Part shown: positions 43,175 through 45,642 of the stretch, one piece after another
Layout of the letters: every line of letters starts with the position of its first letter
How positions within the stretch are numbered: the first letter of the stretch is position 1
NCBI GenBank assembly: GCA_001821935.1
Contig: MHOU01000002.1
Span: 58,793 to 106,090, forward strand
DNA length: 47,298 nucleotides
Direction: 5' to 3'
Source of the DNA: Candidatus Staskawiczbacteria bacterium RIFCSPHIGHO2_02_FULL_43_16
Lineage (GTDB): Bacteria > Patescibacteriota > Minisyncoccia > Minisyncoccales > Staskawiczbacteraceae
Position numbers and translations under genes: made by a program
Notes under the pieces: generated by a model
What the model was told of the DNA's origin: nothing
Databases searched by the model: none
What the model saw: the letters and a program-made list of their open reading frames with translations, nothing else

Positions 43175-43192
43175 CACGGGAACGAGCCACCC

Positions 43193-43221
43193 TTGACAAT
43201 CATACTGTTAGGATATATAAT
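43193..43221 (+). promoter_or_regulatory. Promoter of the DGR target gene
   Basis: TTGACA-N17-TATAAT. Confidence 0.85.
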
Positions 43222-43305
43222 TAACGCAGAGCACCTTGAACAGATTTACCTGGGGCTTTGGGCCACGTTGGCTTGGGGTTAGGGGTGAATCAGGAGGGTT
43301 TTGTA

Positions 43306-44100
43306 ATGTTTAAGCAGCTGGAAAGCTTTGTTGGCGTCATCTGGAGTTTGGTTCTGGCCTTGAAGGCCGCGGCTGAGCAGCAAGGGGAGGAGCCGGAAGA
43401 TTTCATCCAGTTTCTGCAAACCAGGGATGGGAAAATTTTGGTGCCCGGCATGGTGGAGTTTGTGGTCATGGCTCGGCGGGGCAAAAAGCCGGGCAAACCG
43501 GTTTCCCGGCAACTTGAGGAATGGAGGATTTTTTACAAAAAATTCTTCAACTACAAGCTGGATGTGGAGAGTATTCGTATTCCGACGCGCTTGGACGGTT
43601 ATGACCGCTTGATTGTGGTGGCGAAAGGGTTCACCCTTAACCAAATTTACGCCGCCATGGCAAAGCAGTTTACCTGCTCAAGCTACGCGGATGATTTGGA
43701 TAAGGTGGTGATTCACAATGCCCGCGACGCCAATCGCGATGGCACTTACGCCGTCTGGGTCCGCGACCAAAGAGAGGCAGACAAGGAAAACCGGAGCAAG
43801 TCTGCCTATGACTTGTGGGGAACCAAAAATCCGGTTTTCGTTCCCGAAATGCCCTTTATTACGCTCGGGGAGCGCATGCTCTACGAGTTGAAACATTGGG
43901 ACGAAACGGGCGACCAGCTGGACCAGGATAGCTGGACGCAATGCCTTGGCTCGCGCGGTGCCGATGGCGATGTGCTGTGCGTCCGCTTCGCGCCGGGTTA
44001 CGTGCACGTCAGCTGGAGCGGCTGCCTTAACTCCGGTCCCGATCTGGGCGCCCGTTCCGCAGTTTCCCGTCCGCTGGAGCCAAGCGGAGCGCAGGCGTAA
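43306..44100 (+). CDS. DGR target protein, C-terminal variable domain (C-type-lectin/FGE-like fold expected)
   Basis: SD AGGAGGG then ATG 43306; C-term FITLGERMLYELKHWDETGDQLDQDSWTQCLGSRGADGDVLCVRFAPGYVHVSWSGCLNSGPDLGARSAVS contains the VR. Confidence 0.9.
   Translation: MFKQLESFVGVIWSLVLALKAAAEQQGEEPEDFIQFLQTRDGKILVPGMVEFVVMARRGKKPGKPVSRQLEEWRIFYKKFFNYKLDVESIRIPTRLDGYDRLIVVAKGFTLNQIYAAMAKQFTCSSYADDLDKVVIHNARDANRDGTYAVWVRDQREADKENRSKSAYDLWGTKNPVFVPEMPFITLGERMLYELKHWDETGDQLDQDSWTQCLGSRGADGDVLCVRFAPGYVHVSWSGCLNSGPDLGARSAVSRPLEPSGAQA
43948..44067 (+). repeat. DGR variable repeat (VR)
   Basis: 120 bp, ungapped match to 44375-44494; 20 differences, all at TR adenines. Confidence 0.95.
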
Positions 44101-44122
44101 GCGGACTACGTCAATTTTGTCA

Positions 44123-44160
44123 GGCGCTTTGCAACACGGTTGTTGCAAGGCGCATTTTTT
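44123..44160 (+). terminator. Terminator after the DGR target gene
   Basis: GCGCTTTGCAACacggttGTTGCAAGGCGCATTTTTTTT. Confidence 0.85.
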
Positions 44161-44374
44161 TTGTGTAAGATTCTAGCGTGGTCACTATAGCCTCCCAATA
44201 AGCAAGAGTTTATACTGCCACAAGGAAACTGCTTGCCTGATTATATCGAACAATGCAAAAAAGCTGGTTCGGAATACTACCGCGCGACGGACGCGGATAT
44301 GGGTTTCAATCCCATTCAAACAACCCACGCTTATTGGGTTGTTGGTGATACGGAAGTAAGCAGGCAATAAAACG

Positions 44375-44494
44375 GGCTCGCGCAATGCCAATGGCAATGT
44401 GCTGTGCGTCAACTTCAAACCGGGTTACGTGCACGTCAACTGGAACAACTGCAATAACTCCAATCCCAATCTGGGCGCCCGTTCCGAAGTATCC
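44375..44494 (+). repeat. DGR template repeat (TR)
   Basis: GGCTCGCGCAATGCCAATGGCAATGTG...; AAY codons at variable positions, would encode GSRNANGNVLCVNFKPGYVHVNWNNCNNSNPNLGARSEVS. Confidence 0.95.
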
Positions 44495-44501
44495 TAGCTA
44501 A

Positions 44502-44539
44502 TATACCCTATTTTTAAAACGTTTTAAAAATAGGGTATA
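44502..44539. repeat. 38-bp perfect palindrome between TR and RT
   Basis: TATACCCTATTTTTAAAAC|GTTTTAAAAATAGGGTATA. Confidence 0.95.
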
Positions 44540-44616
44540 AGCAAAAATATGAAAAAACCAAATATTAAACAGGTGGTGGTGGGGGGGGGATTAACGGCCA
44601 AACGTTATTTGAAAAA

Positions 44617-45624
44617 ATGGTGGCGTGGGAAAATATATCCGGCGCTTGGGATAACTTCAAAAATGGTAAAACCAGAAAGCCAGAGGTAAAAGAATTTGAA
44701 AAGAATTTAAAAGCCAATTTGAATGGCATTCAAAAAGAACTCAAAACAAAAAAGTATCACCACGCGTCTTATGATACATTTTACGTAAAAGACCCAAAGC
44801 TAAGAGAAATTAATAAGGCCTGCGTGCGTGACCGGGTGGTGCACCATATTCTTTTTAGAAAGCTTTATTCTATTTTTGACCGCGCGTTTATTTTTGATTC
44901 TTATTCTTGCAGAATCGGGAAGGGCACGCACCGGGCGGTCAGAAGGCTGCATGAGTTTTTTAGGAAGGAAAGCAAAAATAATTCCAGAATGTGCTGGGTG
45001 CTAAAATGCGATGTGAAAAAGTTTTTTGAATCTATTGACCGGGATATTCTGGCGCGGCTTCTTTTTGTTAGAGTTAAAGATGAGGGTGTATTGTGGTTGA
45101 TTTCGGCCATTATTAAGAGTTTCCCAAAAGGCTTGCCCTTGGGGAATATTACCAGCCAATTATTTGCCAATATTTACCTGAATGAGTTAGACCAATTTAT
45201 CAAGCAGACGCTTAAAGTAAAATATTATATCCGCTACTGCGATGATTTTGTTATCTTAAGCCGCGATAAACAGCATTTGGAAAACTTAATTTTAAACATA
45301 GATGAATTTTTACGAAATAATTTGGGGTTGTCTTTGCACCCCGCTAAAGTCACCATTACAAAATATCGCCAGGGGATAGATTTTTTGGGGTATGTAAGCT
45401 TTCCGGGATATTCCATATTGAGGGTTAAAACGAGAAAAAGAATGTTTAGAAAAGTGCTAGGTAAAATAGAAGATTACAAAAGCGGGGTTATTTCCAAGGA
45501 ATCTTTTAGCCAAACTGTTCAGTCATACTTGGGAATGTTAAGCCATTGTAATGCCTATATCGTAAGAGTGGAGTTAATCAAAATAATTAAAGAATCTGGC
45601 ATGACAACTCTGGAAGCCGCTTGA
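44617..45624 (+). CDS. DGR reverse transcriptase
   Basis: KCDVKKFFESIDRDIL, GLPLGNITSQLFANIYLNELDQF (xGxxxSQ), YIRYCDDFVILS, HPAKVTITKYRQGIDFLGY; next to TR. Confidence 0.95.
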   Translation: MVAWENISGAWDNFKNGKTRKPEVKEFEKNLKANLNGIQKELKTKKYHHASYDTFYVKDPKLREINKACVRDRVVHHILFRKLYSIFDRAFIFDSYSCRIGKGTHRAVRRLHEFFRKESKNNSRMCWVLKCDVKKFFESIDRDILARLLFVRVKDEGVLWLISAIIKSFPKGLPLGNITSQLFANIYLNELDQFIKQTLKVKYYIRYCDDFVILSRDKQHLENLILNIDEFLRNNLGLSLHPAKVTITKYRQGIDFLGYVSFPGYSILRVKTRKRMFRKVLGKIEDYKSGVISKESFSQTVQSYLGMLSHCNAYIVRVELIKIIKESGMTTLEAA

Positions 45625-45642
45625 AAAAGCGGTTTTTGGTTG
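45613..45642. repeat. 30-bp direct repeat, right copy (contains the RT stop codon, RT terminator)
   Basis: GAAGCCGCTTGAAAAAGCGGTTTTTGGTTG. Confidence 0.9.

What the first reader, a model, noticed from the sequence alone, without database searches (positions are those of the whole stretch)
43175..45642. Complete diversity-generating retroelement (DGR) next to rplL
Seen: VR 43948-44067 and TR 44375-44494 align over 120 bp without gaps (offset 427). I count 20 substitutions, all at TR adenines (20 of 30 A changed, 0 of 90 other bases). Most hit AAY codons (N->G, D, D, R, S, S, G, L, G, D, plus K->A and E->A), and one is silent (GTA->GTT). The GC-rich 3' end CTGGGCGCCCGTTCC is invariant, as expected of an IMH-type region. 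An RT with xGxxxSQ and YxDD motifs follows. Known: adenine-specific mutagenic retrohoming defines DGRs, and they are reported in CPR genomes. The target's N-terminal domain and its ligand are not recognisable from sequence, so the biological role may be undescribed.
Basis: partly seen in the sequence, partly recalled or inferred. Interest (0 to 1): 0.95.

Follow-up and report, generated by a model that had tools for sequence, protein, structure and literature searches.

The report
Slippage-gated hypermutation cassette (DGR)
A tiny-genome bacterium carries six gene-hypermutating cassettes, and most, including this one, appear to be switched on and off by a slippery run of repeated DNA letters at the start of the mutator gene, a control not found described for such cassettes.

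Summary
VR 43948-44067 and TR 44375-44494 differ at 20 sites, all TR adenines (20 of 30 A, 0 of 90 others), and a DGR-type reverse transcriptase (RT) follows. It is a complete DGR, one of six in this 740-kb genome.

The upstream ATG (44549) is out of frame with the RT at G9 and in frame at G7 or G10. Across 181 related Patescibacteria-type RT loci, 123 carry a simple sequence repeat at this place (G7-13, (GT)n, (GA)n, pentamer), against 4% of control windows and 0 of 50 viral DGRs. The repeat lies in the 5' codons of RT, of the antisense accessory gene avd, or of both. All 42 repeat-free avd genes have an in-frame ATG; only 31 of 106 with a repeat do. One strain pair, two SNPs apart in 9 kb, differs by TGTG there, switching avd. 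Where both genes overlap the repeat, their ON lengths coincide (37 of 40).

Best reading: a DGR whose mutator is phase-variable. No prior report was found in the open literature searched. Switching is inferred, not measured.

The parts
43145..43174 (+). rplL terminator, copy 1 of a perfect 30-bp direct repeat that flanks the DGR
   Evidence: hairpin -17.6 kcal/mol, z -3.9
43306..44100 (+). DGR target gene (264 aa); start taken from alignment with homologues
   Evidence: no Pfam/NCBIfam/PHROG match; AF2 model pLDDT 84
43948..44067 (+). variable repeat (VR), 3' end of the target gene
44069..44106 (+). predicted hairpin just 3' of VR, spanning the target's stop codon (possible IMH-associated hairpin)
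   Evidence: -21.3 kcal/mol, z -2.1; weak
44124..44161 (+). intrinsic-terminator-like hairpin plus T-run after the target gene
   Evidence: -21.6 kcal/mol, z -3.5
44375..44494 (+). template repeat (TR)
44497..44542 (+). long A/T-rich palindrome directly 3' of TR
   Evidence: -21.8 kcal/mol, z -7.7
44549..44580 (+). proposed RT start (ATG 44549, MKKPNIKQVVV...) reading into the tract; at G9 this frame ends after 46 codons, at G7 or G10 it runs into the RT
44581..44589 (+). G9 tract: proposed phase-variable simple sequence repeat gating the RT; the only G/C run of 7 or more in the window
44569..45624 (+). DGR reverse transcriptase (frame open from 44569; first in-frame ATG 44617)
45613..45642 (+). 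second copy of the 30-bp terminator repeat; its first 12 bases are the last RT codons and stop

Best explanation
This is a working-type diversity-generating retroelement whose mutator is phase-variable. Shown by sequence: a TR that templates adenine-specific changes in the C-terminal codons of a target gene, an intact DGR-type RT, and a G9 tract between an upstream start codon (44549) and the RT core. Inferred mechanism: slipped-strand mispairing changes the tract length. At G7/G10/G13 the ATG is in frame and RT is made, so VR is rewritten by mutagenic retrohoming. At other lengths, including the assembled G9, the reading frame ends early and the target stays fixed. The same gate, built from different repeat units, sits in RT and/or antisense avd of most relatives. 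In about half of the repeat-bearing avd loci one tract lies where RT and avd overlap head-to-head and sets both genes in frame at the same length. The window's type (RT gate, no avd) falls among such loci on the RT tree and is probably derived from them by loss of avd.
For: DGR. Repeat conserved by position, not by unit: 123/181 RT loci (107 poly-G, the rest GT, GA/AG, CCTGT, A) versus 211/4997 control windows for any repeat and 13/4997 for G/C>=7; 0/50 viral DGR loci. Frames: repeat-free avd 42/42 with in-frame ATG; repeat-bearing avd 31/106, yet 106/106 have an ATG reading into the repeat in some frame (control 46-53%) (Fisher 2e-17). RT of the window's class: 6 in frame, 8 out, every out case with an ATG in another frame. 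Phase shows no phylogenetic signal (53 changes versus 49 for shuffled labels), so it flips faster than species diverge. Direct strain evidence: L132 versus L136, 8960 nt, differ by TGTG in the repeat plus 2 SNPs, avd ON versus OFF. Coordination: where RT has no ATG after the tract, RT and avd share the ON phase in 37/40 unambiguous loci, versus 2/17 where RT has its own ATG. The avd codon antisense to the RT ATG is His (CAT) in 43/54 such loci, versus 3/42 repeat-free and 2/37 avd-only poly-G loci. Genes stay intact while OFF (avd full-length in 98/106).
Against: No reads, transcripts or proteins were available, so switching and expression are inferred. Only one species gave strains with different repeat lengths; other near-identical pairs had equal lengths. 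In the window an in-frame ATG (44617) lies inside the conserved N-terminal region and might start a slightly shortened RT. Slippage during transcription or translation could leak RT at any tract length. Assembled homopolymer lengths are consensus values. Loci are related, so counts are not fully independent, above all the shared-phase count.
Confidence: 0.8

Rival explanations
1. Ordinary, always-on DGR. RT starts at ATG 44617 and the poly-G is incidental.
For: ORF callers give 44617-45624; the RT is intact; VR has been mutated.
Against: Poly-G>=7 upstream of 107/181 related RTs versus 0.26% of control windows. Coding similarity runs upstream of 44617 to the tract (FEK-I/M in relatives), and close relatives C12b and G008 have no ATG/GTG/TTG between tract and core.
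Confidence: 0.08
2. Slippage gate without heritable switching: RNA polymerase or ribosome slippage on the run yields a constant low dose of RT/Avd whatever the length, as a throttle.
For: RT/avd shared-tract loci are in frame less often than 1/3 (8/59, P 5e-4); long G runs can slip during expression (general knowledge).
Against: All three phases occur, whereas programmed frameshifting predicts one fixed offset. Dinucleotide and pentanucleotide repeats replace poly-G at the same place. Strains differ by a 2-unit change.
Confidence: 0.1
3. The tract is a DNA/RNA signal (ribosome binding, G-quadruplex, cDNA priming), not a frame switch.
For: Poly-G is strongly conserved next to the RT start.
Against: The unit is not conserved: (GT)n, (GA)n and (CCTGT)9 replace it. 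It stays with the RT/avd 5' ends even where avd separates it from TR. Frame statistics and the His/ATG pattern are unexplained by it.
Confidence: 0.03
4. The out-of-frame loci are assembly errors or decaying genes.
For: Homopolymer length can be miscalled; six RT contigs begin at or next to the tract.
Against: Equal lengths in separate assemblies of the same strain (L038/L077/L078, L088/L090, L111/L113, L121/L122, L127/L129). Dinucleotide repeats show out-of-frame cases too. avd and RT ORFs are otherwise intact, and VR variation shows activity.
Confidence: 0.05

Closest known systems
Diversity-generating retroelements, Patescibacteria/CPR clade (DGR clade 2 of Roux et al. 2021, PMC8144416)
   Same: Adenine-specific TR to VR transfer, DGR-type RT, C-terminal VR in a target without recognisable domains, CPR host
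   Different: A slippage-prone repeat in the 5' codons of RT and/or avd is not mentioned in the passages searched. That paper reports significantly lower activity for clade 2 without this explanation
Bordetella phage BPP-1 DGR (bRT, bAvd, Mtd)
   Same: RT family (best PDB hit 8ub7); avd of relatives matches PF22296 bAvd; weak local fold matches of the target to Mtd
   Different: No repeat gate found in 50 viral DGR loci; here avd is antisense and head-to-head with RT, or absent as in the window
SSR-mediated phase variation (contingency loci of Neisseria, Campylobacter, Haemophilus)
   Same: Homopolymer or short-unit repeat just after the start codon, frame ON in roughly one third, strain-level length changes
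   Different: The gated gene is itself a targeted hypermutator, and in many relatives one tract gates two antisense-overlapping genes in the same phase

Membership tests
Diversity-generating retroelement | TR/VR pair differing only at TR adenines | tested here: met
   20/30 A, 0/90 non-A; six pairs in the genome pooled about 100/177 A, 1/500 non-A
Diversity-generating retroelement | RT of the DGR lineage | tested here: met
   phrog_1423 380 bits; profile best to 8ub7 (210 bits) over group II (114) and retron-type (110); LGxxTSQ motif. No outgroup-rooted tree was built
Diversity-generating retroelement | VR at the 3' end of a target ORF | tested here: met
   VR ends 30 nt before the target's stop codon
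Diversity-generating retroelement | Accessory protein (Avd or substitute) in the locus (common, not universal) | tested here: not met
   No avd in the window's locus; present antisense in most relatives (PF22296)
Diversity-generating retroelement | IMH with GC stretch and downstream hairpin | tested here: inconclusive
   The GC stretch contains no A, so its invariance is uninformative; hairpin 44069-44106 weak
Diversity-generating retroelement | C-type-lectin-like VR scaffold | tested here: inconclusive
   AF2 model confident; top four PDB matches are Mtd variants, with TaqVP and FGE lower down, but E above 1
Diversity-generating retroelement | Ongoing VR diversification in the population | not testable with these tools
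   No reads for the window; met in relatives
SSR phase-variable (contingency) locus | Slippage-prone repeat in 5' coding sequence or promoter, above background | tested here: met
   G9 at 44581-44589, unique in the window; 123/181 versus 4.2% of controls
SSR phase-variable (contingency) locus | Unit gain or loss toggles the reading frame from a start codon | tested here: met
   G7/G10 in frame, G8/G9/G11/G12 out
SSR phase-variable (contingency) locus | Repeat length differs between close strains | tested here: met
   Met in a relative only: L132 versus L135/L136/L170; not testable for the window itself
SSR phase-variable (contingency) locus | Expression switches with repeat length | not testable with these tools
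   No expression data

The most novel reading that the evidence does not exclude
Patescibacteria control targeted hypermutation by heritable, reversible slippage switches. Each of several DGRs in one cell carries its own gate, mostly OFF. In a large group a single tract inside two head-to-head overlapping genes turns RT and Avd on together, so the mutator arms only in rare lineages and its product is then frozen when the tract slips back.
Probability: 0.65. Interest if true: 0.93.

Novelty: new variant of a known kind. Interest (0 to 1): 0.9.

Why it matters
A DGR left on would keep destroying the binding site it has just found. How DGR activity is limited is an open question, and CPR DGRs were reported as less active than average without this explanation (PMC8144416). 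A slippage switch on the mutator gives a simple bet-hedging answer: search while ON, keep the result while OFF. It also predicts that standard gene calls miss or truncate avd and RT in most CPR DGRs. It is directly testable by counting tract lengths and VR diversity in existing reads, and it offers a self-arming, self-disarming design for targeted protein evolution.

Tried and rejected
Looked for avd or a remnant in the window's DGR: none. Searched the window's TR over the whole genome for further targets: only its own VR, plus a second TR that belongs to a second DGR. Considered the poly-G as Shine-Dalgarno, G-quadruplex or priming element: rejected because GT, GA and CCTGT repeats replace it. 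Considered programmed frameshifting: disfavoured because all three phases occur. Looked for terminator-type flanking repeats at other DGRs, as evidence of a mobile unit: not found. Target function: no Pfam/NCBIfam/PHROG/PADLOC hit, fold search not significant. Literature: ten full-text searches gave no paper joining DGRs with slipped-strand, homopolymer or SSR control; only open-licence papers are held.

Full report
1. Observation. The VR/TR pair is exactly as described: 120 bp, offset 427, 20 substitutions, all at TR adenines (14 A>G, 4 A>C, 2 A>T; 20/30 A, 0/90 other). The RT ORF is intact with LGNITSQ and YCDD.

2. Membership. The RT matches a phage RT family at 380 bits (phrog_1423). A profile of 13 relatives scores 210 bits against 8ub7 RT, about 100 bits above group II (114) and retron-type RTs (110). 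I take 8ub7 to be the BPP-1 bRT structure from my own knowledge; the PDB row says only 'Reverse transcriptase'. The target (264 aa, start set by homologues) has 15 relatives in a 5.8-billion-protein set and no known domain. Its AF2 model is confident (pLDDT 84, VR in C-terminal strands). The four best PDB matches are Mtd variants, with TaqVP and FGE further down, but E is above 1, so a C-type-lectin fold is suggested, not shown. It is a DGR.

3. Six DGRs in one small genome. The window lies in contig C2 of a 740-kb, 12-contig genome. Six related RTs are present (the other five are 37-68% identical to the window's), each with its own TR/VR: pooled about 100 of 177 TR adenines changed against 1 of 500 other bases. 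The second DGR's VR is cut by the contig end. In the genus, 10 of 13 genomes have such RTs, and 26 of 38 in the family.

4. Insertion after rplL. In two relatives (L061, L052) rplL, its terminator and the DUF4258-like gene (window 45708-46061) are adjacent without a DGR. In the window the DGR sits between two perfect copies of the 30-bp rplL terminator, the second overlapping the last RT codons. So it is a lineage-specific insertion with a duplicated edge. The other DGRs checked lack such repeats, and the mechanism is unknown.

5. The gate. A G9 tract (44581-44589) precedes the RT core and is the only G/C run of 7 or more in 47 kb. Of eight G/C runs of at least 9 in the whole genome, five are DGR tracts. 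An ATG at 44549 reads into the tract. At G9 this frame stops after 46 codons; at G7 or G10 it enters the RT. Coding similarity of the RT family extends upstream of the annotated ATG 44617 to the tract, and two close relatives (C12b, G008) have no start codon between tract and core. By assembled length, of the six DGRs three RT gates are OFF (window, C2a, C12b), one is ON (C12a), one has its gate in avd and ON (C11), and one has no repeat (C6).

6. The gate is conserved as a repeat, not as a sequence. I collected 215 RT loci from genomes and metagenomes, mostly Patescibacteria (183 clusters at 90% nt, 181 usable). 123 have a simple repeat within 170 nt upstream of the RT core: poly-G 7-13 in 107, otherwise (GT)n, (GA)n/(AG)n, (CCTGT)9 or A8. 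Control windows in the same loci: any repeat 4.2%, nearly all A/T runs; G/C>=7 0.26%. Viral DGR loci: 0 of 50. Repeat-bearing loci span many named CPR lineages.

7. Frames behave like a random switch. Most relatives carry avd (PF22296 bAvd) antisense and head-to-head with RT, with the repeat in the 5' codons of avd. Without a repeat, 42/42 avd genes have an in-frame ATG. With a repeat, 31/106 do (5 more have only GTG/TTG), but 106/106 have an ATG that reads into the repeat in some frame (random positions 46-53%). For avd-less loci like the window's, 6 RTs are in frame and 8 out. Phase is scattered over the RT tree without signal (53 changes, shuffled mean 49). The genes are otherwise intact.

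8. Strain evidence. L132 and L136 (a Levybacteria-type locus) are identical over 8960 nt except for TGTG in the repeat and two SNPs; avd is ON in L132 (MSNINKPVHTHT...) and OFF in L136. L136 and the Levybacteria genome L170 differ at 16 sites, all in VR and all at TR adenines; two other strain pairs give 19/21 and 18/18. So relatives' DGRs are active and the repeat length changes on the same short time scale.

9. One tract, two genes. In 59 clusters the RT has no ATG between tract and core, so its start must lie upstream, antisense inside avd. There RT and avd are in frame at the same tract length in 37/40 unambiguous loci (51/54 overall), against 2/17 where RT has its own ATG (Fisher 4e-9). 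The avd residue opposite the RT's ATG is His (CAT) in 43/54 of these, against Lys in most repeat-free avd genes (His 3/42) and Gln/Glu in avd-only poly-G loci (His 2/37), as expected if CAT is kept because its complement is the RT start. These loci are in frame less often than 1/3 (8/59, P 5e-4), as expected if ON is costly or brief. On the RT tree the window's avd-less group falls among such loci, so its gate is probably a relic of the two-gene switch; this nesting was read from an unrooted FastTree tree and not tested formally.

10. Mechanism. Inferred: replication slippage toggles RT (and Avd in relatives), and an ON lineage rewrites VR through mutagenic retrohoming until slippage silences it. 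Shown: the anatomy, the frames, the statistics and one strain-level length change. Not shown: expression, switching rate, and tract heterogeneity in the window's own population.

11. Known versus new. DGRs in CPR are known (PMC8144416), and that survey found clade 2 (CPR) significantly less active. SSR phase variation is classical in other bacteria. Their combination, and the antisense two-gene gate, were not found in the open literature searched. I rate it a new variant of a known kind with high interest.

12. Caveats. Tract lengths come from assemblies, many loci are related, and only one species gave strains with different lengths. The literature library lacks subscription papers and most preprints.

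Noticed in passing
own genome C2, C6, C11, C12 (L004, L032-L035): Five further complete DGRs in the same 740-kb genome, each with its own TR, VR and target; contig C2 begins inside the VR of one of them, probably an assembly break from VR variation.
   Followed up: yes
43145-43174 and 45613-45642: Perfect 30-bp duplication of the rplL terminator brackets the DGR; two relatives have the empty site. How the insertion arose is unexplained.
   Followed up: partly
L269 about 2418-2426 (own genome C12 about 98917-98925): A G9 tract in the first codons of a GNAT-type acetyltransferase ORF (MEALRHEGGGLKEQ...), in frame as assembled: possibly another phase-variable gene, not a DGR.
   Followed up: partly
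L270 about 2381-2390 (own genome C12 about 142380): A C10 run between a NUDIX-like ORF and a small membrane-protein ORF; role unknown.
   Followed up: no
44230-44370: Short open stretch between target and TR (CLPDYIEQCKKAGSEYYRATDADMGFNPIQTTHAYWVVGDTEVSRQ) with no family match; a remnant or part of the TR RNA leader.
   Followed up: no
L045 3613-3747 and 4523-4657: One TR serves two tandem target genes with separate VRs in a genus relative.
   Followed up: no
L048, L089, L098, L105, L099, L146: Six RT contigs begin at or next to the repeat tract (L105 starts with 15 C), which may reflect tract-length heterogeneity in the populations.
   Followed up: partly
L134: Two separate G9 tracts, one just after TR and one before the RT core.
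   Followed up: no
44497-44542: Very stable A/T-rich palindrome directly 3' of TR (z -7.7); several relatives have other hairpins at the same place.
   Followed up: no
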